DNA of 64,000 nucleotides. It comes from a bacterium. GTDB taxonomy: Bacteria; Actinomycetota; Thermoleophilia; Solirubrobacterales; Solirubrobacteraceae. The stretch's first letter is position 1. Each line of letters starts with the position of its first letter. Positions 2,863 through 50,016 of the stretch are shown here, in pieces. A program made the translations under genes and the position numbers. The stretch covers positions 1-64,000 of the forward strand of contig JAJPKQ010000030.1 of assembly GCA_021323635.1 (NCBI GenBank), written 5' to 3'. The notes beneath the pieces are model-generated. The model was given only the letters and a program-made list of their open reading frames with translations. It was not told where the DNA came from and ran no database searches.

Positions 2863-2881
2863 GCGCCAGGGAACGCTCAGG
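2858..2881. terminator. hairpin between convergent genes
   Basis: CCTGAGCG, an 8-nt loop, then CGCTCAGG. The perfect 8-bp stem spans the stop codon of the secreted-protein gene and the stop codon of modBC. No U-tract follows, so it may act as a weak bidirectional terminator. Confidence 0.45.
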
Positions 2882-4700
2882 CTGCAGCAGGCGCCCAGCA
2901 GCGCACGCCCGTCGGATCGATCGCCACCTCCACGCGCTCCCCGACCGAGAGGCCCGCCCACGCGCTGCCGCGCGCAAGCAGCGAAAGGCCGCCCACGGCA
3001 AGGCGCGCCTCGAAGCTGCCACGGATCGGCAGCGCCTCGCACACAACCGCCCTGATCGTGCGCCCGCCGGGCGAGCGGCCCTCGCTCAACCGAGCAACCG
3101 CCTCAGGCGCGATCGCGGCCATCACCTGGTCCCCCGGCCGCCACTCGCTGCCTTCAAGCTTCAGCACAAGATCGGGCAGGCGCAGCGAGCGCGCCTCCGT
3201 GATCACGCCGGCGTGGACGTTCGGCGTCCCGACCAGCTGCGCCACGCGCATGCTCGCCGGCTGGGCGAAGACCTCCGCCAGCGACCCTGACTGCAGCACG
3301 CGCCCGCCCTCGATCACAACGACCAGCTCAGCGAGACGAGCGACCTCCTCCGGGTCGTGGCTCACCAGCACCGTCGCAAAGCCGGTCTGCCGCCGCAGGC
3401 GCGCAAGCTCCTCCTGAAGCTCCGATCGCAGCACCACATCAAGCGCGCTGAAGGGCTCGTCGAGCAGCACCAGCTGCGGATCGCACGCCAGCGCGCGCGC
3501 CAGCGCCACCCTCCGTCGCTGACCGCCGGAGAGCTGCTCAGGCCTGCGCCCTGCAAGCGCTGCAAGCCCCAGGCGCTCAAGCCACCAGGCCCCGCGCGCA
3601 GGCTGAGCGCGCGGCGCGAGCGTCACCTGCTCCCAGACCGTGCGCCGCGGCAGCAGGCAGGCATCCTGGGGCACGTAGCCAATGCCGCGATCGCTCGGCG
3701 GAAGCCCGCCAAGCTCGCGCCGGCCGATCTCGATCTGCACCTGCGCGCCGCTCGCAAGCCCGCAGAGCGCGCGCAGGGTCAGCGTCTTGCCTGCCCCGGA
3801 GGGTCCCAGCAGTGCCACCGCGCCGCCCGCGCGCATCGGCGGGACCGAGACCGTGAAGTCCCCCGCCCGCGCCTGCGCAGCAAAGGAGACGGTCTGTGCG
3901 CGCGCCGCGCGGGGAGCCTCCGCGGTGAGTGCGGGCGGGGGTCCGGAGGCCCTGTGCGGAAGCGCCGGGGCCACCCGCAGCGCCGCCAGAACAATCACCG
4001 CTGCGCCCAGCGCGACCGCCACCGGCAATGCGGTTGCGCCAAGCCCGCTTGAATCGAACTGTACGAACGTATAGACGGGCAGCGAGTAGGGGTGGTAGGC
4101 GAGTATCACGGTCGCGCCAAACTCGCCGAAGGCGCGCAGCCATGCCAGCAGCAGCCCCGCGCGCACGCCCGGCCAGGCAGCATGCAGGGCGATGCGCCCA
4201 AAGCGCGCAAGCGGCCCGTGCCCGAGCGTCGCCGCCACCTCCTCCAGCGCCGGGTCCACCGCCGCAAAGGCGGCGCGCGCGGCGATCACCAGGAAGGGCG
4301 CAGCGACAAAGGACTGCGCGAGCACGACCCCCGTGAGCGAGTCCGTCAGCGCGCCGCCGAAGATCCGCCCGAGCAGGGTGTAGGGGCCGACGACGTAGAG
4401 CAGCAGGATCCCGCTCATCAGCGGCGGCAGCGCAAGCGGCAGCGCCACGAGCGCTTCCAGGATCGCTGCCGCGCGCGAGCGCGAGCGCGCCAGCAGATAG
4501 GCGAGCGGCACGCCGCCGAGGGCGATCAGCGCAGTGGCGATGGTTGCGCACAGCAGCGAGACCGCAAGCGCCGAGAGCGCCCCCGCGGGCAGCGACAGCC
4601 CGCCGTGCAGGCGCACCACGAACGCCCCGATCGGCACCAGCAGGTAGAGCGCAAGCAGCGCCGCGAGCGCATGGAGCGGAAGGCGCGCGCGCGCGCTCAA
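2877..4700 (-). CDS. modBC: fused molybdate ABC permease-ATPase (ModB-ModC)
   Basis: 607 residues joining two normally separate subunits. Residues 1-245 are a multi-helix ModB-like permease with the cytoplasmic EAA-type loop around 150-180. After a proline/alanine-rich linker, residues about 268-480 are the ATPase: Walker A GPSGAGKT at 299-306, LSGGQ at 390-394, Walker B LVLLDEP from 410 and the H-loop histidine at 448. The last about 120 residues look like a TOBE-type oxyanion domain. Translation starts at TTG 4698-4700, overlapping the modA stop by 4 bp. As one chain it would assemble as a homodimer with two permease and two ATPase halves. Molybdate rather than tungstate or sulfate is inferred from ModA, the TOBE regulator upstream and the Mo enzymes elsewhere in the window. 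Confidence 0.88.
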   Translation of the reverse strand: MSARARLPLHALAALLALYLLVPIGAFVVRLHGGLSLPAGALSALAVSLLCATIATALIALGGVPLAYLLARSRSRAAAILEALVALPLALPPLMSGILLLYVVGPYTLLGRIFGGALTDSLTGVVLAQSFVAAPFLVIAARAAFAAVDPALEEVAATLGHGPLARFGRIALHAAWPGVRAGLLLAWLRAFGEFGATVILAYHPYSLPVYTFVQFDSSGLGATALPVAVALGAAVIVLAALRVAPALPHRASGPPPALTAEAPRAARAQTVSFAAQARAGDFTVSVPPMRAGGAVALLGPSGAGKTLTLRALCGLASGAQVQIEIGRRELGGLPPSDRGIGYVPQDACLLPRRTVWEQVTLAPRAQPARGAWWLERLGLAALAGRRPEQLSGGQRRRVALARALACDPQLVLLDEPFSALDVVLRSELQEELARLRRQTGFATVLVSHDPEEVARLAELVVVIEGGRVLQSGSLAEVFAQPASMRVAQLVGTPNVHAGVITEARSLRLPDLVLKLEGSEWRPGDQVMAAIAPEAVARLSEGRSPGGRTIRAVVCEALPIRGSFEARLAVGGLSLLARGSAWAGLSVGERVEVAIDPTGVRCWAPAAA

Positions 4701-5593
4701 CTGCCTGGAATCAGCGCGCGCAGGCTTGGCGCAAGCAGCGCGGGCGAGCCGCTGAGCGTCGGCGTCATCACGCTCAGGCCATGCGCAGCAAGCAGCGCGC
4801 GTCCGGAGCTCCCGAGCAGATAGGCGACAAACGCCTGCGCGCCGGTGGGATCAGGCGCGCCGGTCGGGATCGTGATCGTGAACGTCGCGCCGAGATGCAG
4901 CCCGGCAAGCGCCACCGTCGGTATGTGCGCTTCAGCGGCCTCGTTGGCATAGAAGAAGCCGCCATCAAGCTGGCCGGACTGCAGGCGCCCGACCAGCGCC
5001 GCCTCCGGGAAGACTTCAAAGCGGCCAAGCGCGCTGCGCAGGGCCGGCAGGTGCAGGTCCACGGCCGCCGCTTCAAGTGCTTGCACCGTCAGCTTGCCCT
5101 TGGGGTCGAGCTTGGGGTCCGTGCGGCCGATCCGCCAGCGCGGCTCCGTGAGCACCTGATACCACGGCCGATGGCGCAGCTGCGCCGCGATCGCGCTGTG
5201 GGGGTCATAGCCGAAGACCAGCGGCGCCTTGGCAAAGGTCACATACCACTCCGCGCGCTGCCTGCCGCCGGCCCGCTCCAGCGGCACGTCCGCCTTCGGG
5301 CTTGCGGAGATGAACACGTCCGCCACGTGCACGCCGCCACGCATCTCGCTCACCAGTTCATCAGAGCCGCCTGCGAAGCCTTCCAGCCGGTAGCCGCTCG
5401 CGCGATCGAAGGCGGGGCCGATCACCGCTTCCATCAGATGCTCGAGCGATGCGGCATAGAGCACGGCCACCGGGCCTCCTCCGCCCGCTGATGACCCGCC
5501 CTTCGCGCTCGTGCCGCAACCGGCAACGAGCAGCGCAGCGGCCGCCAGCAGCGCCGCGGCCAGACCACCTGCATATGTACGCCTCGATCTCAT
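4697..5593 (-). CDS. modA: molybdate-binding lipoprotein
   Basis: 298 residues. The N-terminus carries a lipoprotein signal (RSRR, hydrophobic alanine/leucine core, lipobox VAGC with Cys about 26), so the mature protein is anchored outside the membrane. The body has the periplasmic-binding-protein type II layout with VLYAASLEHLMEAV at the start, a pattern shared by ModA/WtpA-type oxyanion binders. It lies between the TOBE regulator and modBC with 4-bp overlaps on both sides, one translationally coupled operon. WtpA-like tungstate binding cannot be excluded from sequence alone. Confidence 0.85.
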   Translation of the reverse strand: MRSRRTYAGGLAAALLAAAALLVAGCGTSAKGGSSAGGGGPVAVLYAASLEHLMEAVIGPAFDRASGYRLEGFAGGSDELVSEMRGGVHVADVFISASPKADVPLERAGGRQRAEWYVTFAKAPLVFGYDPHSAIAAQLRHRPWYQVLTEPRWRIGRTDPKLDPKGKLTVQALEAAAVDLHLPALRSALGRFEVFPEAALVGRLQSGQLDGGFFYANEAAEAHIPTVALAGLHLGATFTITIPTGAPDPTGAQAFVAYLLGSSGRALLAAHGLSVMTPTLSGSPALLAPSLRALIPGS

Positions 5594-6000
5594 CGATCCT
5601 CGCTTTCTGTTCTGTCATCCCTCTCCACCATCACCGAGGTCGCCTTCACGAGCGCTGTCGCATGCACCCCCGGGGCAAGCCCAAGCTCGCTGACCGAGTC
5701 ACGCGTTATCGCCGCGGTGAGCAAAAACGGGCCGGCCTCGATCTCAACCAGCGCCATCACGCCGTCCACCTCGACGGAGCGCACTACGCCTGGAAAGCGA
5801 TTGCGCATCGACGCGGGTGTGCCGGTGCGATGACGCGCCGGCCGCTGCGTCAGGCGCTCGACCTCAGCGCGCCCCACCAGCCTGCGGTTGGCAGCGTCGC
5901 GACGCACCTTCAGCCGTCCGGCGCGCTCCCAGCGCCGCAGCGTGTCGACGCTGACGCCGATCGCCTCAGCCGCCTCGCCCAGCGAGAGCTCGTCCTTCAT
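5590..6000 (-). CDS. MerR-type HTH plus TOBE molybdate-responsive regulator
   Basis: About 136 residues from ATG 5998-6000. Residues 5-55 are a MerR/excisionase-type helix-turn-helix (LSLGEAAEAIGVSVDTLRRW); residues about 65-130 form a Mop/TOBE domain that binds molybdate (RNRFPGVVRSVEVDG, ending ALVKATSVMVE). This two-domain arrangement is a small functional equivalent of ModE. A longer reading from 6027 would translate the palindrome, so the shorter start is preferred. It is the first gene of the modA-modBC operon, and the palindrome at 5999-6027 overlaps its start codon, implying autoregulation. Confidence 0.85.
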   Translation of the reverse strand: MKDELSLGEAAEAIGVSVDTLRRWERAGRLKVRRDAANRRLVGRAEVERLTQRPARHRTGTPASMRNRFPGVVRSVEVDGVMALVEIEAGPFLLTAAITRDSVSELGLAPGVHATALVKATSVMVERDDRTESEDR

Positions 6001-6027
6001 GCTGCCTATGTATAGCATAGGCAGCAT
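5999..6027. promoter_or_regulatory. inverted repeat over the mod operon start, operator
   Basis: ATGCTGCCTATG, the 5-nt spacer TATAG, then the exact reverse complement CATAGGCAGCAT. On the minus strand the centre reads TATGCTATACATAG and includes a plausible -10 element placed so that transcription would start at or near the ATG. The CTATG-TATAG-CATAG core has the A/T-rich dyad character of ModE operators. Binding here would block both transcription and translation start. Confidence 0.75.
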
Positions 6028-6040
6028 TAGGGTGCCCTTA
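6027..6040. promoter_or_regulatory. TTAGG-N4-CCTAA box, one mismatch
   Basis: Reads TTAGGGTGCCCTTA. It is immediately upstream of the mod operator and overlaps the stop codon of the HTH gene. One base differs from the exact palindrome found at five other promoters in this window. Confidence 0.5.
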
Positions 6041-6727
6041 TCGCTTAGGGCGTCCTCTCTGCGCCAGCATCACCTCAACCAGGCAGCCTGCGCGGGCCGG
6101 GTCGCGAGGCTGAAACTCGCTCAGCTGCGCGCCTGGCGCGAGCTTGGCGAGCAGCCCGCGGTTGATGCCTCGGTGCAGCCCGCAGACCACCGGCTGGTTG
6201 GCCTTCGCCGCAGCACGATAAGGACAGTTGCGCAGCGTCAGCGCAAGGCGGTCCGCGCTCTCCGCGCGCACCCGCGGCTGGAAGCCAAGGACGGTGAGCG
6301 CCCCAAGCAGCTCGTCAGCGGGCTCTGCGCCGCGGCGTGGGCGCGGCGCGACCTCTTCGCCGATCTGCACTCCCGCCTCCTCCACGCGCCTGACGTTCTT
6401 GGCGGTCGGCTCGATCGCGCGCGCCAGCCAGCGCACGAGGTCTCCATAGGCATGCGGCGGCCGGCCGCCCGGGCGGCCCTCTGCAGCGACCCTCCACACA
6501 TCCGGCGGGCGGCCGCGGCGGCCGCGCAGGCGCTCGCGCTCGATCAGCCCCGCCTCAGCAAGCCGCTCGAGGTGGACGCGCACGCCATTGGGATGCAGCT
6601 CCAGTCGCTGCGCGAGCTCTGCGGTGGCGGCCGGGCGCCCAAGCTCGTGCAGCAGCGCATAGAGACGCGCGCGCGTGGGCTGCGCGAGTGCGTCCTCGGG
6701 CTCCGTCGGCGTGGGCAGGTCGATCAC
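6038..6727 (-). CDS. ArsR/DeoR-like HTH regulator with C-terminal cysteines
   Basis: About 229 residues from GTG 6725-6727. The N-terminal third is a winged helix (QPTRARLYALLHELG, then AELAQRLELHPNGVRVHLERL). The C-terminal part has NCPYRAAAKANQPVVCGLHRG and a later cysteine in AGCLVEV, the spacing seen in SufR-like and related HTH regulators that bind an Fe-S cluster or metal. Cluster binding is inferred from the cysteines only. It lies upstream of the mod regulator in the same direction, with about 40 bp between them, and downstream of the sensor kinase gene. Its target is unknown. The start could also be TTG further upstream (6748). Confidence 0.7.
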   Translation of the reverse strand: MIDLPTPTEPEDALAQPTRARLYALLHELGRPAATAELAQRLELHPNGVRVHLERLAEAGLIERERLRGRRGRPPDVWRVAAEGRPGGRPPHAYGDLVRWLARAIEPTAKNVRRVEEAGVQIGEEVAPRPRRGAEPADELLGALTVLGFQPRVRAESADRLALTLRNCPYRAAAKANQPVVCGLHRGINRGLLAKLAPGAQLSEFQPRDPARAGCLVEVMLAQRGRPKR

Positions 6728-6826
6728 ACCACCATTTTGCCACAGCACTCGTGTGCAAACCGGCGCTGGTGCGCTTGCAGAGGGCTCGCTCAGCGCGGCC
6801 GTCGGGGAGCGCGCCCCTTTGCTTCG

Positions 6827-19470: not shown

Positions 19471-19476
19471 ATTTTA
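19471..19476 (-). promoter_or_regulatory. -10 element of the small gene-hemerythrin operon
   Basis: Reads TAAAAT on the minus strand, 6 bp from GTG 19464. No good -35 is visible. Suggests a leaderless start. Confidence 0.4.
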
Positions 19477-19552
19477 CCACCGTCGATATGTAAATGCTTG
19501 GCCGCGGGGCGCCACTCCTCGGCGCCACGATAAGGCATCGACCCATCTGGTA

Positions 19553-19567: not shown

Positions 19568-20062
19568 ATGAGGTCTTTGATCTCCTTCCCAAACCCGCTC
19601 AACGAGAAGGCCGCGCGGGTCGTGGCCGCCGTCGTTGCCGCGATCAGCGTGATCGCGCTCGCGACGGGCGCCTACTGGCTGTCGGCGCCCCTCGCCTACG
19701 GCTTCATCGCGCGGGCGCTCACCGGCCCCAGGCTCAGCCCGCTGGGCTGGCTTGCGAGCCGGCAGATCGCCCCGCGCCTGGGGCCGGCCAAGCCCGTGCC
19801 CGGGCCGCCGAAGCGCTTTGCGCAGAGCATCGGGGCGCTCCTGAGCAGCGCCGCCGCGCTGCTCGCGCTTGCGGCCGGGCAGGACGTCGCTGCGGAGATC
19901 CTGCTGGCGGCGCTTGCGATCGCCGCCACGCTCGAGGCGACCCTCGGCTTCTGCCTCGGCTGCACGATCTTTGCCGCCCTGATGCGCGTGGGGCTGATAC
20001 CGGCAGAGGTCTGCAGCCAGTGCGCCAACATCTGGGCGCCGCGGCAAGGCGCCGGCGCCTGA
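19568..20062 (+). CDS. DUF4395 family membrane protein
   Basis: 164 residues with three to four hydrophobic helices (about 17-50, 88-125, and LEATLGFCLGCTIFAALMRVG at about 120-140). The start FPNPLNEKAARV and the FCLGC...VCSQCANI cysteine pairs are typical of DUF4395 proteins, often found near rhodanese or thiol-redox genes. Function unknown; the cysteines suggest a redox or sulfur link (inference). It converges with the Mo hydroxylase gene, separated by a short hairpin. Confidence 0.8.
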   Translation: MRSLISFPNPLNEKAARVVAAVVAAISVIALATGAYWLSAPLAYGFIARALTGPRLSPLGWLASRQIAPRLGPAKPVPGPPKRFAQSIGALLSSAAALLALAAGQDVAAEILLAALAIAATLEATLGFCLGCTIFAALMRVGLIPAEVCSQCANIWAPRQGAGA

Positions 20063-41269: not shown

Positions 41270-41304
41270 CTGCGGTCACCTCGTTTGCACAGCATGCCTG
41301 GATA

Positions 41305-41844: not shown

Positions 41845-42567
41845 TCACGCGCGCGGCGCTTGGGCGGCCGCGCCGGCGGCGCCCAGCGCCCGAACGCGCG
41901 GAAAGAGGATGTTGTTCTCCTCGTGGATGTGCCGGTGCAGATCCGCCTCAAAGCGCTCCAGCGCGCCGAGCAGGCTCCGATGCGTCGAGCAGAGCGCGCC
42001 CTCCCGGTTGTAGCCGCCGCCCAGAGCGCGCAGCTCACCAAGCTGCGCGCCGACCTGCTCGTGCTCGCCTGCGTGCAGCGCCAGCAGCTGCTCATCGACG
42101 CCCGCTCCCGCCGCCGCCCCCCGACAGGCCGGAAAGAGCTGCTGCTCCTCGCGGGCCATGTGGCGCTCGAGCCCGGCCGCCATCGATCTGAAGGTGTCCT
42201 GCAGCAGCGCGAGCTCCGGCTGCTTGGCGCCGTGCACCCGCACCACGGTCGCAAGCAGCTCCTCGATCCGCGGCCGCTCCCTGCGCACGCGCTCGTGATG
42301 GCACTCGACGATGTGATCGCAGAGCTCGGGAATGCCCGCACTCAGCCAATCGCGCTCCCCCTCTTGATCGGCGCCTTGCGGGATGCGGGCAAAGGCCTCG
42401 CACGCCAGGGCAACTGTCGCACCGTCCAGCCCGCGGGCGCTTGCTGCGGCAGCAAGCGTCTGCTCGCCACCACAGCAAAAGTCAAGATGCAGCTCCTCCA
42501 GCAGCCGCGCACACTGCGGATGCTCCGCAACCAGCCTCCCGAGCGTCATCTCTGGATCGATCACCAT
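41845..42567 (-). CDS. RIC/ScdA-type di-iron protein 1
   Basis: 240 residues from ATG 42565-42567 with AAAGGCAGG upstream. N-terminal DUF542 domain with the hallmark LHLDFCCGGEQTL; then a hemerythrin-like four-helix part (HIVECHHERVRRERPRIEEL, ERHMAREEQQLFPA, LHAGEHEQVGAQL, DLHRHIHEENNILFPR). Such proteins repair Fe-S clusters after NO or oxidative damage. A YACA-N7-TGTR element lies in the promoter region at 42611-42625. Paralog of the gene at 43750. Confidence 0.9.
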   Translation of the reverse strand: MVIDPEMTLGRLVAEHPQCARLLEELHLDFCCGGEQTLAAAASARGLDGATVALACEAFARIPQGADQEGERDWLSAGIPELCDHIVECHHERVRRERPRIEELLATVVRVHGAKQPELALLQDTFRSMAAGLERHMAREEQQLFPACRGAAAGAGVDEQLLALHAGEHEQVGAQLGELRALGGGYNREGALCSTHRSLLGALERFEADLHRHIHEENNILFPRVRALGAAGAAAQAPRA

Positions 42568-42610: not shown

Positions 42611-42625
42611 CACAGCTTCGATGTA
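42611..42625. promoter_or_regulatory. YACA-N7-TGTR element upstream of RIC protein 1
   Basis: CACA-GCTTCGA-TGTA, about 45 bp upstream of the gene on the minus strand, next to a TAAACT -10 candidate. One of four such sites near nitrogen-oxide genes. Confidence 0.5.
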
Positions 42626-42718
42626 CTAACAGTTTGCATAGCGGAGCACGTGCCCGAAGCCCGACGCGCCCCAGGGATCCAGGCTCATGCGCTCCCAGCA
42701 TCCACTAGCCTCAAGGCG

Positions 42719-43732
42719 ATGCGGGTGGCCGCAATCCAGCTGGAGCCCGAGATCGGGAATGTTGCCGAGAACCTGCGGCGTGCATGGGCGCTCGCCGAGC
42801 GTGCCGCCATGGCGGGCGCGGAATGGATCGTGCTGCCCGAGTTCTTCGCCACCGGGATGGCCTTCATGGATCAACTGGCAGACGCTGCCCTGCCGCACGA
42901 CGGCGCGGCCACGCAGCTGATGCAGGAGCTTGCGCGCAGACATCACGCGTTTGTCTGCGGCTCATTCATCTGTCGCGATCGCGACGGGGAGAACCGCAAC
43001 GCCTGGCTGCTGGTGGGGCCCGATGGAGCGGTGGCTGGTCGCCACGACAAGGACCTGCCGACAATGTGGGAGAACTGCTTCTACGTGGGCGGCGCCGACG
43101 ATGGGGTGCTTGAAGCGGGCGGTCTGCGCGTCGGCGCGGCGCTCTGCTGGGAGCTGATGCGCACAGCTACCGTTGCCCGCCTGCGCGACCTCGTCGACCT
43201 GGTGCTCGCCGGCTCTGCGTGGTGGTCGATACCGCAGATGGCGCCGCGGCGGCTAAGCGCCCGACTCGAGGCGGCAAACGCGCACACGGCGGCCTCGGTC
43301 GCCCCGGCGCTTGCACGGGCCCTCGGAGTGCCGGTTGTGCATGCTGCCCACTGCGGGAAGGTGCGCTGCAAGCTGCCGCTTGCCCGCCCCTTCGCCTATC
43401 GCGGCCACTACGAGGGCGGGACCTGCATCGTCGATGCTCACGGCGGCGTGCTTGCCTGGCGCTCGGCCCGGGAGGGCCCTGGCGTGGTCGGCTGCGAGCT
43501 GGAGGTCGAGCGTGCACAGCCCACTCTGGAGGCGGGGCCCGGGCGGTGGCTGCACGCACGCGGCGCGATCCCCGCGGTTGCGTGGCATTGCCAACGCGCC
43601 CATGGGCGGCGCTGGTATCGGCGCCACGCGCGCGGCAGGCCGCCGCTGCGCCGCCCGCTGCAGGAGCTGCTCGAAGCCTCTGATCAGGCGCAATCGGTCG
43701 GCCTGCGCCCGAGCGACCCGGCATCTGCGTAG
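42719..43732 (+). CDS. carbon-nitrogen hydrolase (nitrilase superfamily)
   Basis: 337 residues from ATG 42719. The nitrilase fold is shown by MRVAAIQLEPEIGNVAENL, the catalytic Glu in WIVLPEFFATG, Lys in GRHDKDLPTMWEN and Cys in VGAALCWELMR (E-K-C triad). This superfamily cleaves amides or nitriles; the exact substrate is not predictable. It sits between the two RIC paralogs, transcribed divergently from the first and in the same direction as the second. Confidence 0.85.
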   Translation: MRVAAIQLEPEIGNVAENLRRAWALAERAAMAGAEWIVLPEFFATGMAFMDQLADAALPHDGAATQLMQELARRHHAFVCGSFICRDRDGENRNAWLLVGPDGAVAGRHDKDLPTMWENCFYVGGADDGVLEAGGLRVGAALCWELMRTATVARLRDLVDLVLAGSAWWSIPQMAPRRLSARLEAANAHTAASVAPALARALGVPVVHAAHCGKVRCKLPLARPFAYRGHYEGGTCIVDAHGGVLAWRSAREGPGVVGCELEVERAQPTLEAGPGRWLHARGAIPAVAWHCQRAHGRRWYRRHARGRPPLRRPLQELLEASDQAQSVGLRPSDPASA

Positions 43733-43743
43733 GGTGATATATT

Positions 43744-43758
43744 CACACTATGACTGTG
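43744..43758. promoter_or_regulatory. YACA-N7-TGTR element over the start of RIC protein 2
   Basis: CACA-CTATGAC-TGTG, overlapping ATG 43750. A TATATT -10 candidate at 43738-43743 implies a transcription start at the ATG, so binding would block initiation. Confidence 0.55.
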
Positions 43759-44499
43759 TATATGGCAGCGGCGGAGGCCGCGGTTGATCCAGAGCGACCG
43801 CTTGCGGAGCTGGTCTTGGGTCACCCCGAGCGCAGAGCGCTGCTTGAGCGCCTGCAGCTCGACTACTGCTGCGCCGGCACGCAGACGCTTGCCGGCGCCT
43901 GCGCAGAGCGCGGCCTCGACGCGGGCACGATGAGCCAGGTGCTGCAGGCGCTCTCCTCCAGGGCAGCGGGGGGCGGCGAGCTGCACGACTGCGAGCGGCA
44001 GGGGACGAGCCTGGCTGCGCTCTGCGAGCACATCGCCGCAGTGCACCACGTGCGCGTGCGCGGGGAGCTGCCGCGAATCGGCGTGCTGCTCTCGCGCGTC
44101 GTTCACGCCCACGTCGCGCAGCGCCCGGCCTTGGGCGAGCTCCAGCATGCCTTCGACGCGCTGCGCGCGCTGCTCGAGCCGCATCTCCAGCTTGAGGAGG
44201 ATCTGCTCTTTCCTCGCTGCGTGGCACTTGAGCGCAACGGCATGCCGATCGAGGAAGCGTTGATCGAGGCGCACGAGGACGAGCACCGAGCGATCGGCGA
44301 GCGCCTGACGTTCATGCGACAGCTCGCCCAGGGCTACGATCGCTCGCATGCGCTCTGCGAAACCCACCGTGCGACGCTCGAGGCCCTTGCCGCCTTCGAG
44401 CTCGATCTGCGCCAGCACATCCATGAGGAGAGCAACATCCTGCTGCCGCGGGCGCGCGAGCTTGCCGCGCAGGCACGCAATGCGATGCGTGCGGGCTGA
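43750..44499 (+). CDS. RIC/ScdA-type di-iron protein 2
   Basis: 249 residues; ATG 43762 is an alternative start. DUF542 motif LQLDYCCAGTQTL, then hemerythrin-like helices with HIAAVHHVRVRGELPRIG, EPHLQLEEDLLFPRC, EAHEDEHRAIGERL and LRQHIHEESNILLPRA. About the same length and layout as the protein at 41845, so the two arose by duplication. Predicted role: repair of Fe-S clusters or NO binding. Confidence 0.9.
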   Translation: MTVYMAAAEAAVDPERPLAELVLGHPERRALLERLQLDYCCAGTQTLAGACAERGLDAGTMSQVLQALSSRAAGGGELHDCERQGTSLAALCEHIAAVHHVRVRGELPRIGVLLSRVVHAHVAQRPALGELQHAFDALRALLEPHLQLEEDLLFPRCVALERNGMPIEEALIEAHEDEHRAIGERLTFMRQLAQGYDRSHALCETHRATLEALAAFELDLRQHIHEESNILLPRARELAAQARNAMRAG

Positions 44500-44520
44500 G
44501 CCGCGAGCTGATCGAGGCTC

Positions 44521-44541
44521 CCGCCGCTTCACACGCGGCGG
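44521..44541. terminator. GC-rich hairpin between convergent genes
   Basis: CCGCCGC, 7-nt loop, GCGGCGG, located between the RIC protein 2 stop and the DUF2269-like gene stop. No U-tract. Confidence 0.4.
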
Positions 44542-44580
44542 CCTTGGCCCGGGCGGCTGAGTCGCCGGGTGCGCCGGCCA

Positions 44581-45048
44581 CTAGGGCTGGAAGACCATCA
44601 GCGCCAGGATCGCCAGCACGATCAGCGCCGAGACGTAGTTGGCGGTAAGCGCAAGCCGGTCATCGAGCAGCGCGCGCAGCTGCGTATCCCCTGCGGAGCC
44701 CGCCTGGGCCAGCGCGCGCGCATGCTTGCGCGCGCGCTTGGGCGCCTGGCCACCGAGCCCGCCGAGGATCAGCACGACCACATAGAGGATCAGCGCCGCC
44801 TGGATCCAGCCGGCGCGGTAGCCCACACCGGTGATGCTCACCAGCCACAGGCCGAAGGCGGGCACCATCAGTCCCCCGACCATCACCATCAGCGCCCCCA
44901 CCCGCGCCAGCGAGAGCAGCAGCGCAACCTCCGCCGGCTGCGCCCGTCTGCGTGCCGCCTCAAAGGCGACGCCCGCCACGACGATCCCCGCGACGAAGAT
45001 CAGGACGCCGAGAATGTGGAAGAAGAGGGCGATCTCGTAGCTGCTCAT
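44581..45048 (-). CDS. DUF2269-like integral membrane protein
   Basis: 155 residues with four hydrophobic helices. YEIALFFHILGVLIFVAGIVV at the N-terminus and GWIQAALILYVVVLILGG in the middle resemble DUF2269 proteins. A histidine in helix 1 could be a heme or metal ligand. Follows the NnrS-like gene by 3 bp, so co-transcribed. Function unknown. Confidence 0.7.
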   Translation of the reverse strand: MSSYEIALFFHILGVLIFVAGIVVAGVAFEAARRRAQPAEVALLLSLARVGALMVMVGGLMVPAFGLWLVSITGVGYRAGWIQAALILYVVVLILGGLGGQAPKRARKHARALAQAGSAGDTQLRALLDDRLALTANYVSALIVLAILALMVFQP

Positions 45049-45051
45049 GGC

Positions 45052-46197
45052 TCAGCCTCCGGCAGGTGCGAGCTTAGGCGACTCGCGCGCCCGGCGGGAC
45101 CTGCGCGCGCGGGCGCCGCGGAGCACCGCATGGGCGGTGAAGACGATGAAAAGCAGGATCGCTGCCTCGTTGCCGACGCCGCCCCACTGCCACGCCGTCA
45201 CGTTGCCGGCCAGATCGCCGCCGATCAGCCGCAGCGCAAGCGAGAGATGCAGCAGCAGGAGATGCGCATAGAAGAGCGGGCTGTAGCGCAGCGGCACACG
45301 CACCACCGCCGGCACGATCACCCCGGCATGGGCAAAGACCATCGAGATCACAAAGCCCAGGAAGACCGCATGCAGGGCGGCGTCGTAGGCAAAGCCATCG
45401 CTCGTCGGCGCGTCGAGAAGCCAGATGAAGCCTGCGACAAGCAGCCACAGGTAGCCCGCGAGCAGCGCGCAGGCCATGAAGCGCGTCAGACCGGCGGAGC
45501 GAACGGTGCGTCGGGCGACATCGAAGAGGAGGAGCCACAGTGCCTGCGCCGCGACCCCTGCACCCGCGATCCGCATGCCCAGATGCTCGTGCGCGATCGA
45601 TATCGCAAGGCCGAGCCCAAAGAGCGCGATTGCGCCGATCAGCGCCGAGCGCTGCCAGGCGCTGCGCTCCAGCGTGCGCGTGAGCTCCAGGCGCTCGCCC
45701 ACGATTGTCGCCACCAGATAGCCCGCCAACAGCGGCGCAAAGGAGGCGACATCCGCGCCTGCCAGCCACATTGCTGCCGCCGCGCACCAGGCGAGCGCAC
45801 CAGCGCCCATCACCAGGTTGTGGGCGCTCGGCTGGATGCGCCCGATCACGACATGGGCGCCGAGCAGCACCACCCCCGCAAAGAGGATCAGCGCCTGCCC
45901 GAGCGAGCCGGGCGCACGGGCCAGCGCAAGCAGGGCGCCCGCACCGGCCGCAAGCGGCGCGGCGTAGACAAATGGCCGACCGAGCGCCACCGCGCGCTCG
46001 AGGCTGATCAGCGTCCCCAGGAAGCCGAAGGTCATCAGCGGCCCGTGCACGACCGCCGCGCTCGTCAGATCGCTTGGAACGCTCAGGCCCAGGCGAAGCA
46101 GCCCACCCCAGAGGCCCGCAAAGAGCGCGACCAGCGCAAGCGCCATCAGCGGCGCGCGCGCCAGCAGACGCCTGCGGGCCACCGCTAGCCGCGCCAC
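45052..46197 (-). CDS. NnrS-like multi-pass membrane protein
   Basis: About 381 residues with some eleven or twelve helices. HGPLMTFGFLGTLISLERAVAL and AALHAVFLGFVISMVFAHAGVI place histidines in helices like those of NnrS heme/copper proteins, which relieve NO stress. The frame stays open to 46635, but the upstream part is arginine-rich shadow coding of the SufT-like gene. GTG 46195-46197 (overlap) or GTG 46182 is the likely start. Part of the operon with the SufT-like and DUF2269-like genes. Confidence 0.7.
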   Translation of the reverse strand: MARLAVARRRLLARAPLMALALVALFAGLWGGLLRLGLSVPSDLTSAAVVHGPLMTFGFLGTLISLERAVALGRPFVYAAPLAAGAGALLALARAPGSLGQALILFAGVVLLGAHVVIGRIQPSAHNLVMGAGALAWCAAAAMWLAGADVASFAPLLAGYLVATIVGERLELTRTLERSAWQRSALIGAIALFGLGLAISIAHEHLGMRIAGAGVAAQALWLLLFDVARRTVRSAGLTRFMACALLAGYLWLLVAGFIWLLDAPTSDGFAYDAALHAVFLGFVISMVFAHAGVIVPAVVRVPLRYSPLFYAHLLLLHLSLALRLIGGDLAGNVTAWQWGGVGNEAAILLFIVFTAHAVLRGARARRSRRARESPKLAPAGG

Positions 46198-46625
46198 CCG
46201 AGCATTTCGCGCCCGGCGTCGCTCATCTTCTCCGGATCCCACGGCGGATCGAAGACGATCGTCACCCGCAGGGACCGAACCCCTGGCAGCGCTCCCACGC
46301 AGGCGTCGATCTCGTCTTCCATGTAGCCGCCCAGCGGACACCCTGGCGAGGTCAGCGTCATCGTCACCTCGACCTCGCCCTCGGCGCCCGCCTGCACGTC
46401 GTAGACGAGCCCGAGGTCGACGATGTTCACGCCAAGCTCCGGGTCGATGACCTCGTAGAGGCGATCGTAGATCGCGCCCACATCGACGCCGCCCTCGGTC
46501 GCACGAGCAAGCAGGCCGAGCACGCCACCGAGTGTGCCCGGTGCTCCCTCCTGCGCCTCGCTGCCAGCTGCCGCAGCAGGCGCGCCATCCGGGACTTCCG
46601 CCCGCTCGCCATGGGGCTCGCTCAT
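46185..46625 (-). CDS. SufT/PaaD-like (DUF59/MIP18) iron-sulfur assembly protein
   Basis: 146 residues. After a flexible alanine/proline-rich N-terminus (about 1-45) comes the MIP18 fold: LYEVIDPELGVNIVDLGLVYDV, VTMTLTSPGCPLGGYM with the conserved cysteine, and VRSLRVTIVFDPPWDPEKMSD. These proteins help mature Fe-S enzymes, fitting repair after NO damage. ATG 46625 has GGAGG 5 bp upstream; a perfect TATAAT -10 and a YACA-N7-TGTR element precede it. First gene of the NnrS operon. Confidence 0.88.
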   Translation of the reverse strand: MSEPHGERAEVPDGAPAAAAGSEAQEGAPGTLGGVLGLLARATEGGVDVGAIYDRLYEVIDPELGVNIVDLGLVYDVQAGAEGEVEVTMTLTSPGCPLGGYMEDEIDACVGALPGVRSLRVTIVFDPPWDPEKMSDAGREMLGWRG

Positions 46626-46633
46626 CGCCCTCC

Positions 46634-46652
46634 ATTATACAGAGCTGCTGTG
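46634..46652 (-). promoter_or_regulatory. promoter and YACA-N7-TGTR element of the SufT-NnrS operon
   Basis: TATAAT on the minus strand (46634-46639) is 9 bp before ATG 46625. TACA-GAGCTGC-TGTG at 46638-46652 overlaps and precedes it, filling the space between -10 and -35, a repressor-like placement. No good -35 is seen. Confidence 0.6.
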
Positions 46653-46696
46653 TTTATTGAGGGTGAGCGCCGGACCGGCGCCGACCAGCGTCCCTG

Positions 46697-47155
46697 CTAG
46701 TCGCCCGCGTGGGCATAGCGCGCGACCGTGAAGGCGATCGAGAAGGGGACGGTGAGCGCGAACACCACCAGCATGCCGCTCAGCACGATCAGCGTGCTGC
46801 CGCGCACGCCGTCATAGACGAAGACGTACTCGATCATCCCCGCCGATACCACGTAGGCAAGCAGCCCCCAGCGAAAGACCGTGAAGAAGCGCCTGAAGGC
46901 AAAGCCCCCGGCGCGCGCCAGCAGCAGCGCGTTCAAGACCATCGTGCCGAGCGCGCAGCCGAGCAGCGCCCAGGCAGGGCCGAGCGGGACGCGGTGGGGA
47001 ATGTTCGAGGCCAAGTATGCGCCGCCGGAGACGATCAGGGCAAGCGCGACCATCGCCAGCGGCGTGCAGGGCGGAACGCCGGGCTCCTCGGCGAGGCCCT
47101 CGGCAACCGGGGCCGCCTGCGGCCCGATCTCCTCTTCCGGGGCAAAGGTCGCCAT
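46697..47155 (-). CDS. four-helix membrane protein, unknown function
   Basis: 152 residues: charged N-terminal tail of about 30 residues, then four helices (MVALALIVSGGAYLAS; WALLGCALGTMVLNALLLA; WGLLAYVVSAGMIEYVFVY; LIVLSGMLVVFALTVPFSIAF). No family recognised. Starts 25 bp after the neighbouring membrane gene on the same strand and likely works with it. Its position in the NO-stress region is the only functional hint. Confidence 0.6.
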   Translation of the reverse strand: MATFAPEEEIGPQAAPVAEGLAEEPGVPPCTPLAMVALALIVSGGAYLASNIPHRVPLGPAWALLGCALGTMVLNALLLARAGGFAFRRFFTVFRWGLLAYVVSAGMIEYVFVYDGVRGSTLIVLSGMLVVFALTVPFSIAFTVARYAHAGD

Positions 47156-47180
47156 TCTCAGCCTCCCTGCGCCCGCATCC

Positions 47181-47801
47181 TCAGATCGTCGCCAGACGGG
47201 TCATGATGATCAGCGTCGCCACCTGCATCAGCCCGGTGATTCCGGCGGTGTAGATGAAGCGGCGCATCAGGCGCTCGATCACCGCCGGATCCGGGCGCTC
47301 CTTGCGCATCTCAAAGAGCACCGCGATGTTCGCCGGCTCGAGCAGTCCCAGCGCGATCACCGCCATCACGCCCACCACCGCGTAGGAGGCGACAAGCCAG
47401 CCGTGCTTGGCGCCCCCCGCCTGCAGGTTGCCCAGATGCCGCGCAAGCTGCCATCCGGCGCCGAGCGTCATCGTCACGAGCGTGGGCATGATCAGGCTCA
47501 TCTTCGGCATGAAGCGCGCCGAGAACGCCGCACGGGCGGCAGTCGGCAGCGAGCCCATGATCGGTCCGATCACGAGCCCGACAAAGAGGTCGATTGCCGT
47601 CCACAGGCCGCCGCCGACGACGTGGTAGAAGTCAAGCGCCCACAGCGTGTTGGTTGCGATCGCGGCGATCATTCCACCGATCACCGCAACCACGATCGGC
47701 AGCCCCGCAAGCGGGATGATCGTCGCCGGCACGCGCGGTCGCTCGAACGCCTGCCCCCGCGTCTGCGGCACCCCACCGACACTCTCCACAGCCTGTGCCA
47801 T
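47181..47801 (-). CDS. five-helix membrane protein, unknown function
   Basis: 206 residues. Helices include PLAGLPIVVAVIGGMIAAIA, WALDFYHVVGGGLWTAIDLF, MPTLVTMTLGAGWQLA, SYAVVGVMAVIALGLLEPAN and AGITGLMQVATLIIM. His in FYHVVGG and RHLG could bind heme, resembling small cytochrome-like DUF2269/CopD proteins, but this is not secure. Upstream gene of a two-gene operon with 46697. Confidence 0.6.
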   Translation of the reverse strand: MAQAVESVGGVPQTRGQAFERPRVPATIIPLAGLPIVVAVIGGMIAAIATNTLWALDFYHVVGGGLWTAIDLFVGLVIGPIMGSLPTAARAAFSARFMPKMSLIMPTLVTMTLGAGWQLARHLGNLQAGGAKHGWLVASYAVVGVMAVIALGLLEPANIAVLFEMRKERPDPAVIERLMRRFIYTAGITGLMQVATLIIMTRLATI

Positions 47802-47832
47802 TTCCAGCCTACCCGTGCCTCTCGCGCTCAGA

Positions 47833-48558
47833 TCAGCGCCGTTGCTTTTCGGCCAGCGTCCGGCGGCAACCGGCGCATGGCCACCCGCTTCGGCGCAGTG
47901 TACCTCCTAGACGCGCGCTTTGCAAGGCGGCAGTTTCACGTATCGGCAACGGCGCCGTCAGCCGACAGGGCGCCGTGCATGTGCCTGCGTAAGCCCCACA
48001 CCTATGCTCGTCAAGACGCCTCAGCGCCTGCGTGCGATAGCAGACGCCGAGCTTGCGGCAGATGTGCTGGAGATGCTTCTCGACCGTTCGCGGCCTCAGC
48101 GACATCGCGCCCGCCACCTGAGCAGTCATCGCGCCATGACCAACATGCTCTAGCACCTCCGCCTCACGCGCCGTCAGCCCCCCCTCCCAGAGGCGCTCTC
48201 GGCGCAGCGATGGTCGCCGGATCCCAGCGCCCGGCGAGCCCCCCGCCTGCCTCAGGACGATCGCATCGTGCCTGCGCTCGCCGCCGGCACGCACGAAGCT
48301 CGCGGCAATCGTCCGCGCACCGGACGAGAGCCACAGCGTGCGATCGCGCTGGCGCGGATCGGCCGCCCATCGGCGCAGCGCGGCCGGCAGCGCAGGGCCC
48401 GATCCCGAGCGACTGCGGCGAGGGGCTGCACCTGATGGAAACAAGCCATTCGCGCGCGATCGCAAACGTCCTCGTCGCGCACTCCGGCGGCATCCTCCTG
48501 ACCGACGAGCCCGGCCCACGGCGCACAACCTGATCGAGAAGAAGCGCGTCGAAGGCAA
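47833..48558 (-). pseudogene. truncated LuxR-type regulator
   Basis: The open frame contains a good LuxR helix-turn-helix (LTAREAEVLEHVGHGAMTAQVA, then MSLRPRTVEKHLQHICRKLG) near 48170-48030 and a part that looks like the end of a sensor domain (PALPAALRRWAADPRQ). Upstream of that the frame reads arginine-rich sequence and runs into the beta-helix remnant on the opposite strand. Downstream of the HTH a long arginine-rich tail follows. I read this as a regulator that lost its N-terminal sensor. A DNA-binding fragment might still be made. Confidence 0.5.
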
Positions 48559-48818
48559 CCTCTACGACTGCGGGATCACTGTGACCGGCCATTCGACGAA
48601 GGCCCTCTCGACTACCGGTGCAACCCGGCCGACGCTTGGGGGCATCTACGATCACGATCTTCCGCGCGGTCGTGCCGATCAAGTCGACCACGGTCAGCGC
48701 CAACACGATCAGCAACGTTCACTTCGGCATCTGGGCCAAGAACGCGCCGCCGATCAGCGCCGCCTCAAATCACTTCAAGGGCCTCGCGGTGCCAGTCGAA
48801 GCCTCCGCGGGCCCCTGA
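48430..48818 (+). pseudogene. remnant of a secreted parallel beta-helix protein
   Basis: Three reading frames each carry a piece of one protein: METSHSRAIANVLVAHSGG and GILLTDEPGP (48435-48530), HNLIEKKRVEGNLYDCGITV and HSTKALSTTG (48527-48630), and FRAVVPIKSTTVSANTISN, VHFGIWAKNAPPIS to the stop (48660-48818). The N...N...G spacing is that of right-handed beta-helix (NosD/pectate-lyase-like) proteins. Frameshifts, a missing N-terminus and an internal deletion make it non-functional. Its 3' end underlies the doc-like gene on the other strand. Confidence 0.6.
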
Positions 48819-49192
48819 GCGATGCCGGTGCGCGCCCCCAGCCGCCCGGCGATCGCCCTGACGTCCTCCAGCTCGCCGCTTGACACCGCCATCACGAGCT
48901 CGTGGGCCTCGTCGTTGGAGAGCGCAGGCCGAATCCCGTTCATGCCGTAGGAGGCGATGCTCGCGCCGAGCGCCAGCCGCTCGTTGCCGTCCACCAGAAC
49001 GTGGTTGCGCGCGAGCGAATGCAGCAGGGCGGCCGCCTTCTCATCGACCGACGGGTACGCATCCTCACCGAGCACAGAAGCCCGAGCTCGTCCGCGCGCC
49101 GAGTCGAGCAGACCGTGATCCCGCACCAAAGGGTCGGCCTCCAGCACACGCGCCGCGATGTGCAGGAGGTCCTCGAGCTCCAGATAGATCAC
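48770..49192 (-). CDS. doc: Doc/Fic-family toxin
   Basis: 140 residues. The Fic core reads NHVLVDGNERLA (canonical HxFxDGNKR; Lys is Glu here), preceded by RDHGLLDSARGRARASVLGE and KAAALLHSLARNH. Doc toxins phosphorylate EF-Tu. It follows the RHH antitoxin gene in an ATGA overlap. The C-terminal about 20 residues lie over the beta-helix remnant, so its tail may be recently acquired. Confidence 0.85.
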   Translation of the reverse strand: MIYLELEDLLHIAARVLEADPLVRDHGLLDSARGRARASVLGEDAYPSVDEKAAALLHSLARNHVLVDGNERLALGASIASYGMNGIRPALSNDEAHELVMAVSSGELEDVRAIAGRLGARTGIAQGPAEASTGTARPLK

Positions 49193-49392
49193 ATTCCCAG
49201 GCGGCGCAGCGCCTCAGCGTAGCGCGGAAGCTCCTCGTCGAGGACTCGATCGATGAGCTCTAGGCGGCTGGTTCGCTCGATGTAGTCACGCAGCGCCGTC
49301 CGAGCGACCTCCTGCATCGAGCGCCCCTCCAGTCGCGCGCGCGAGCGCAGCGCCTCGGTCTCCTCGTAGGTGAGCCGCAGTGTCATCGCCAT
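49189..49392 (-). CDS. ribbon-helix-helix antitoxin
   Basis: 67 residues; ATG at 49386 (MTLRLT) is an alternative start. MTLRLTYEETEALRSRARLEGRSMQEVARTALRDY has the beta-strand-helix-helix pattern of CopG/MetJ-type antitoxins (longer run shortened here to its key parts: TLRLT strand, SMQEVARTALRDYI helix). The C-terminal RLELIDRVLDEELPRYAEAL would neutralise Doc. ATGA overlap with doc. Confidence 0.8.
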   Translation of the reverse strand: MAMTLRLTYEETEALRSRARLEGRSMQEVARTALRDYIERTSRLELIDRVLDEELPRYAEALRRLGM

Positions 49393-49402
49393 GCAGCGAT
49401 GG

Positions 49403-49435
49403 CATCAGCACAGATACTACGTCTTGCCGCTGATG
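49403..49435. promoter_or_regulatory. inverted repeat upstream of the antitoxin gene
   Basis: CATCAGC and GCTGATG separated by 19 bp, with a TAGTAT -10 candidate on the minus strand in between. Likely autoregulatory operator of the antitoxin-Doc pair. Confidence 0.45.
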
Positions 49436-49517
49436 GTGGTGCAGTTGGCCAATCGAGCGCTCGGGCGCGCCCGCTGGCTCGGTCAGAGGGTCGAGGCACC
49501 GCAGCTGCGGCTCTTTT

Positions 49518-49537
49518 CTACAGTCGTGCTGTAGTAT
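49518..49537 (+). promoter_or_regulatory. YACA-N7-TGTR element and -10 of the DUF2249 gene
   Basis: CTACAG-TCGTG-CTGTAG at 49518-49534 is a perfect dyad and contains TACA-N7-TGTA (49519-49533). TAGTAT at 49532-49537 overlaps it and places transcription start at or beside ATG 49546. Confidence 0.65.
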
Positions 49538-49545
49538 TGCTCGCG

Positions 49546-50016
49546 ATGGACGGTCGGCACCGAGACCGCGCGCAGCTCAGCGAGGCGCTCACAGAGGCGC
49601 TGCTGGAGTCGCTTGCGGCGCTCGGGCGCGCCGGAGCGGCGGAGCACGCCAACCGCATCGCCGCCCGGGCGTGGTGGGCACTGCGCGCCGAGCACCCGCG
49701 CGAGGCTCAGCGCATCAACGTCCTGATGCACCGTCTGATGAAACACGAAACAACAAAGGAGCAATCGATGTCAGCACCCGAGAACGAGCTCGATGTCCGC
49801 AGCATCCCTCCCGCACGCAGGCACGAGCTGATCTTCGAGACCTACGAGCGCCTTGCGCCGGGCGCGGGGTTCATCCTCGTCAACGATCACGATCCCAAGC
49901 CGCTGCGCTACCAGTTCGAGGCCGAGCACGCAGGCGAGTTCAGCTGGGACTACCTGGAGCAGGGGCCCGAGACCTGGCGCGTGCGAATCGGCCGCCCGGC
50001 CGCGGTCGCCGCCTAG
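49546..50016 (+). CDS. DUF2249 protein with N-terminal helical domain
   Basis: 156 residues. Residues 1-68 are a helical module (ALTEALLESLAALGRAG, ANRIAARAWWALRAEHP) often encoded separately. Residues 75-156 are DUF2249 (ELDVRSIPPARRHELIFETY, GFILVNDHDPKPLRYQFEAE, FSWDYLEQGPETWRVRI), a TusA-like fold common beside hemerythrins and nitrogen-oxide genes. An internal ATG 49768 with a perfect AAAGGAG 8 bp upstream could start the DUF2249 part alone, so two products are possible. Promoter contains a YACA-N7-TGTR dyad. Confidence 0.8.
   Translation: MDGRHRDRAQLSEALTEALLESLAALGRAGAAEHANRIAARAWWALRAEHPREAQRINVLMHRLMKHETTKEQSMSAPENELDVRSIPPARRHELIFETYERLAPGAGFILVNDHDPKPLRYQFEAEHAGEFSWDYLEQGPETWRVRIGRPAAVAA

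What the first reader, a model, noticed from the sequence alone, without database searches (positions are those of the whole stretch)
42611..49537. A second element, YACA-N7-TGTR, at four nitrogen-oxide stress promoters
CACA-N7-TGTA (42611), CACA-N7-TGTG (43744), TACA-N7-TGTG (46638) and TACA-N7-TGTA (49519) lie at the promoters of RIC protein 1, RIC protein 2, SufT-NnrS and DUF2249. Three overlap or adjoin a clear -10 element, which suggests a repressor released by NO. The short pattern alone would occur about once by chance in 64 kb, so its significance comes from position and function. It does not match the FNR/NNR, NorR or NsrR motifs I know.
Basis: partly seen in the sequence, partly recalled or inferred. 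Interest (0 to 1): 0.7.

Follow-up and report, generated by a model that had tools for sequence, protein, structure and literature searches.

The report
Iron-sulfur sensor regulon for nitrogen-oxide stress

Summary
That gene (6038-6727, minus) encodes a SufR/COG2345-like winged-helix protein with three invariant cysteines and an invariant histidine. Across 232 Solirubrobacterales genomes the element extends to TTTNYACA-N7-TGTRNAAA. It recurs at RIC, DUF2249, SufT-like, ferredoxin and nitrate-respiration promoters and at the regulator's own promoter. A matrix trained only on RIC/DUF2249 promoters of other genomes finds the box at 51 of 75 regulator promoters, against 1 of 75 in the control. Genomes carrying the extended box tend to carry the regulator (35/74 against 9/158, p=4e-13). 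A recognition-helix change (Asn to Ser) goes with a changed operator. Of 38 core matches in the 2.6 Mb genome only seven score as real; five are in this window. Best explanation: an autoregulated Fe-S-type repressor of a nitrosative-stress and Fe-S-repair regulon. Release by NO and repression itself are inferred, not shown. It is not SufR proper.

The parts
42611..42625 (.). operator box at the RIC protein 1 promoter (core CACA-N7-TGTA)
   Evidence: matrix score 29.4
43744..43758 (.). operator box at the RIC protein 2 promoter; overlaps the predicted start codon (core CACA-N7-TGTG)
   Evidence: score 30.2
46638..46652 (.). operator box at the SufT-like/membrane protein promoter, centre 20 bp before the start codon
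   Evidence: score 21.2
49519..49533 (.). operator box at the DUF2249 promoter, centre 20 bp before the start codon
   Evidence: score 19.9
6741..6755 (.). fifth operator box, at the regulator's own promoter (autoregulation), centre 21 bp before the GTG start
   Evidence: score 23.0
6038..6727 (-). SufR/COG2345-like regulator: N-terminal winged helix, C-terminal sensor domain with invariant Cys, Cys, His, Cys
41288..41302 (.). possible weak, half-degenerate box at the narG promoter
   Evidence: score 15.7; no exact core match; boxes near narG also in G089 and G019
41845..42567 (-). RIC protein 1 (ScdA_N + hemerythrin), target
43750..44499 (+). RIC protein 2, target
46185..46625 (-). DUF59/SufT-like Fe-S assembly protein, target; first gene of a probable operon with the next part
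49546..50016 (+). DUF2249 protein with N-terminal extension, target
2877..6027 (-). HTH/TOBE-like protein, ModA-like and ModBC-like genes, same strand, about 11 bp after the regulator: probable operon (molybdate uptake for nitrate reductase); names read from sequence, not HMM-tested
   Evidence: gene calls; operon inferred

Best explanation
The YACA-N7-TGTR elements are cores of a 23-bp palindromic operator, TTTNYACA-N7-TGTRNAAA, bound by a dimer of the SufR/COG2345-like regulator encoded at window 6038-6727 (minus) and by its paralog on contig C41. The regulator has an N-terminal winged helix and a C-terminal sensor domain whose invariant C-X13-C-X2-H-X29-C residues probably hold an iron-sulfur cluster. 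In unstressed cells the holo-protein sits over the -10/start region and represses its own gene (and probably the following molybdate-transport genes), two RIC proteins, the SufT-like/membrane-protein operon and DUF2249. When nitric oxide or related stress destroys the cluster, repression is lifted and the repair proteins are made. Shown by sequence: the sites, their conservation, the link to the regulator, autoregulatory placement, invariant ligands. Inferred: cluster, NO as signal, repression rather than activation, leaderless starts.
For: Five window sites against 0.40 expected; 7 of 38 genome-wide cores score as real, 5 of them in the window. Box upstream of RIC in 16/25, DUF2249 in 11/20, regulator in 21/75; reversed control 1, 2 and 0. 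Matrix trained on RIC/DUF2249 promoters only finds regulator promoters 51/75 against 1/75. Extended box and regulator co-occur across genomes, p=4e-13, control p=0.40; by genus all 12 box genera are among the 24 regulator genera of 54. N-type recognition helix: 49/68 canonical box, 0 variant; S-type: 0/6 canonical, 5/6 variant box. Invariant three Cys and one His in 74 proteins. Other targets: ferredoxin, IscA/BolA, aconitase, NarG, Rieske. Published SufR precedent: holo-form represses, cluster loss derepresses (PMC9045647; PMC6034842).
Against: No binding, spectroscopy or expression data. The signal could be O2, H2O2 or iron starvation as much as NO. 24 of 75 regulator promoters score below the cut-off, 6 of them S-type, five of which have another dyad. 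G185 and G093 have boxes at RIC but no regulator was found (incomplete genomes, 87% and 84%). Some targets (aa3 oxidase, OsmC, cupin) are not specific to NO. The recognition-helix test was set up after seeing the variant sites, and all S-type proteins come from one genus.
Confidence: 0.74

Rival explanations
1. Same regulator and operator, but the signal is general Fe-S or redox damage (O2, H2O2, iron shortage), with NO only one of several triggers.
For: Targets include ferredoxin, IscA/BolA, aconitase, Rieske and OsmC proteins. [quoted passage not shown]
Against: In the window and on C41 the sites cluster around nitrate reductase islands and RIC genes; the regulon's RIC and DUF2249 genes are accessory and occur together with the box.
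Confidence: 0.45
2. The box is bound by a different, unlinked regulator (FNR/CRP, NsrR or MarR/OhrR type), and the SufR-like gene is merely another target.
For: OhrR operators (from memory) share the TACA-N7-TGTA outline; a regulator gene can be a target of another factor.
Against: Box presence tracks this regulator across genomes, and a recognition-helix substitution in it coincides with an operator change. The window has no TTGA-N6-TCAA. NsrR is Rrf2-type; this protein is HTH_20/ArsR-like.
Confidence: 0.08
3. The protein is an activator, or a dual regulator, rather than a repressor.
For: Some relatives have boxes 60-80 bp before the gene, or two boxes.
Against: Dyad centre about 20 bp before the start codon at three window genes, over the start codon at RIC2; far boxes often lie between divergent genes.
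Confidence: 0.12
4. Chance palindromes without function.
For: The bare core does recur by chance: 10 reversed-pattern matches in the genome.
Against: Conservation, score separation and link to the regulator.
Confidence: 0.01

Closest known systems
SufR (cyanobacteria; Rv1460 of M. tuberculosis; S. avermitilis)
   Same: N-terminal winged helix, C-terminal cysteine motif, autoregulation, operator over the -10/start, link to Fe-S biogenesis; Mtb SufR loses repression on NO or ROS damage (PMC9045647).
   Different: Operator TTTNYACA-N7-TGTRNAAA instead of CAAC-N6-GTTG; C-X13-C-X32-C with a His instead of C-X12-C-X13-C-X14-C or the Mtb spacing C203/C216/C244; far below the SufR model cut-off; regulon is NO/Fe-S repair and nitrate respiration, whereas SufR is described as dedicated to the suf locus.
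NsrR (Rrf2-type NO-sensing repressor of RIC/ytfE)
   Same: Works alike in outline: Fe-S type repressor of RIC genes (PMC9268430).
   Different: Unrelated DNA-binding family and operator.
Wider COG2345-like regulators of Actinobacteria beside a DUF59/Mrp gene
   Same: Same domain layout and similar Cys motif.
   Different: No YACA box; other dyads.
V4R / TRAPP-Bet3 / MopR sensor fold
   Same: Predicted fold of the C-terminal domain (Z about 11 over 122-127 residues, rmsd about 3).
   Different: Function and ligand differ; shared fold only.

Membership tests
SufR | N-terminal winged-helix DNA-binding domain | tested here: met
   Pfam HTH_20 43.2 bits, cut-off 27
SufR | TIGR02702 above cut-off | tested here: not met
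   24.3 bits against 178.8, HTH part only; none over cut-off in 21 genomes
SufR | C-X12-C-X13-C-X14-C, or Mtb C203/C216/C244 spacing | tested here: not met
   C-X13-C-X32-C plus His, invariant in 74 proteins; published motifs
SufR | operator CAAC-N6-GTTG | tested here: not met
   operator is TTTNYACA-N7-TGTRNAAA; published site
SufR | binds an Fe-S cluster | not testable with these tools
   ligand residues only
SufR | represses the suf operon | not tested
   suf promoter of this genome was not located; IscA/BolA box seen in one relative (G042)
NsrR (Rrf2 family) | Rrf2 domain | tested here: not met
   Rrf2 16.9 bits, cut-off 30; HTH_20 is the best match
FNR/NNR operators | TTGA-N6-TCAA | tested here: not met
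   no match in the window; the boxes read differently
V4R-like fold (C-terminal domain) | structural match over the whole domain | tested here: met
   model pLDDT 94.4; Bet3, MopR, PoxR at Z 10-11 over about 125 residues; fold only

The most novel reading that the evidence does not exclude
A previously undescribed family of Fe-S-cluster NO sensors, distinct from NsrR, NorR, FNR/DNR and SufR, governs nitrosative-stress and Fe-S repair genes across Solirubrobacterales through its own operator, with an Asn/Ser recognition-helix switch that re-set operator specificity in one genus.
Probability: 0.5. Interest if true: 0.75.

Novelty: new variant of a known kind. Interest (0 to 1): 0.62.

Why it matters
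A 2021 review describes SufR as dedicated to the suf locus, and a 2022 review of RIC regulation lists NsrR, DnrD, NorR and staphylococcal regulators but nothing SufR-like. Here a SufR-like protein appears to run the nitrogen-oxide repair programme of an order of soil Actinobacteria for which I found no described NO regulator. It gives a concrete regulator, operator and target list that one gel shift and one expression experiment can test.

Tried and rejected
The first gene caller put a wrong-strand ORF over the regulator; it was found only through its relatives. TAGTACA...TGTAGTA repeats in G007 and G023 match the loose pattern but stand at AAA ATPase genes as tandem 16-bp repeats: excluded. 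Spacers of 4, 5, 6, 8 and 10 gave 0-2 matches; spacer 9 gave more only because the extended dyad often contains TACA-N9-TGTA. OhrR-like operator considered from memory; dropped because the centre here is not A/T-rich and box presence follows the SufR-like protein. A remembered M. tuberculosis SufR site (ACACT-N5-TGTGA) could not be checked: the paper is not held, so it is not used as evidence. A paper search for COG2345 with nitric oxide found none. No structural match to a solved SufR appeared, which excludes nothing.

Full report
OBSERVATION. YACA-N7-TGTR has five matches in the 64 kb window against 0.40 expected; no shuffle reaches five. In the whole 2.6 Mb genome (a 46-contig assembly; the window is contig C29) the stricter YACAG-N5-CTGTR has 10 matches against 0 for the reversed control, and the core has 38 against 10. 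The fifth window match, 6741-6755, was not in the finding.

CONSERVATION. The RIC and DUF2249 genes are accessory: 22 and 19 of 232 Solirubrobacterales genomes have them (the order is named from the records). Relatives carry the same core at the orthologous promoters, with symmetric flanks giving TTTNYACA-N7-TGTRNAAA. In several relatives one box lies between divergent DUF2249 and SufT-like genes; here the two genes are apart and each has its own box. Over the order, the box is upstream of RIC in 16 of 25, DUF2249 in 11 of 20 and the regulator in 21 of 75 cases; the reversed pattern in 1, 2 and 0.

THE REGULATOR. Loci in G052 and G019 hold a winged-helix protein near these genes. This genome has two copies: one in the window on the minus strand, ending in front of a probable molybdate-transport operon, and one on C41 beside a second nar cluster. 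They are 55% identical. The fifth box lies 13 bp before the window copy's GTG start. The C41 copy has a degenerate box (score 18.1), and two strong boxes on C41 stand before an ECF-type sigma factor and a small ORF. Seventy-four orthologs share invariant C167, C181, H184 and C214 (numbering of the fragment aligned).

LINKING REGULATOR AND BOX. Three tests agree. (a) A matrix built only from RIC/DUF2249 promoters of other genomes finds a site within 150 bp of the regulator start in 51 of 75 cases at score 8 or more, against 1 of 75 reversed promoters and 3 of 74 regions further upstream. (b) Genomes with TTNYACA-N7-TGTRNAA are enriched for the regulator: 35 of 74 regulator genomes against 9 of 158 others, p=4e-13; the reversed pattern shows no such link, p=0.40. 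By genus, all 12 box genera are among 24 regulator genera of 54, p=8e-6. G041, 97% complete, has RIC and DUF2249 but no regulator and no box at either gene. (c) At recognition-helix residue 46, 68 proteins have Asn and 6 Ser. Canonical boxes stand at 49 of 68 Asn-type promoters and none of the Ser-type; the variant TTTTRCKA-N7-TMGYAAAA stands at 5 of 6 Ser-type and none of the Asn-type, p=3.7e-7. Test (c) was framed after seeing the sites, and the Ser-type proteins come from one genus, so its p-value overstates independence.

REGULON. The relatives-trained matrix splits the genome's 38 cores cleanly: seven score 19.9-33.2, the next 11.7 (at a MarR/MFS pair), the rest 4.9 or less. Five of the seven are in the window. 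Across the order, boxes precede RIC, DUF2249, the regulator, a 7Fe-type ferredoxin, SufT-like proteins, multi-span membrane proteins, OsmC and cupin proteins, and in single cases aconitase, NarG, an MFS transporter, Rieske and aa3 oxidase proteins, and BolA with IscA. A narG box here (41288, 15.7) is plausible but weak.

MECHANISM. Dyad centres are 20-21 bp before the start codons of the regulator, SufT-like and DUF2249 genes, and over the start codon of RIC2. If these transcripts are leaderless, as the -10-like hexamers suggest, the protein would block the promoter. The C-terminal domain is predicted with high confidence (pLDDT 94.4) to have the V4R/Bet3/MopR fold. By analogy with SufR, whose holo-form represses and whose cluster loss derepresses, NO or related damage would release it. 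Cluster, signal and sign of regulation are inference.

KNOWN OR NEW. It works like SufR or NsrR in outline but is not a member of SufR as defined: model score, cysteine spacing and operator were tested and not met. More distant family members across Actinobacteria sit beside a DUF59/Mrp gene and lack the box. I rate it a new variant of a known kind.

LIMITS. Nothing here is experimental. Genomes are mostly incomplete assemblies, so absences are soft. Co-occurrence tests are not corrected for descent except at genus level. Literature coverage is the open-licence library only.

Noticed in passing
G007:C281:3104-3140, G023:C240:2946-2998: Tandem 16-bp units TAGTACA...TGTAGTA just upstream of AAA-type ATPase genes; looks like a separate regulatory repeat.
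   Followed up: no
G167:C71, G172:C1, G175:C12, G161:C308, G166:C164: Variant operator TTTTRCKA-N7-TMGYAAAA at regulators with Ser in place of Asn in the recognition helix: a possible natural specificity switch.
   Followed up: partly
L303-L326 (other Actinobacteria): Distant relatives of the regulator lie divergent from a DUF59/Mrp-type gene and seem to share another upstream motif (around GATTnGGACGGTGCTTACC).
   Followed up: no
G000:C41:20001-40000 (L041): Second nitrate reductase cluster with its own regulator paralog, an ECF-type sigma factor and two strong boxes.
   Followed up: partly
window 19476-19490: Weak matrix hit (11.7) upstream of a small ORF at 19568; not interpreted.
   Followed up: no
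G000:C27:880-894: Perfect palindrome TACAGGCAAACTGTA between divergent MFS transporter and MarR-like genes; probably a MarR operator.
   Followed up: no
   Followed up: partly
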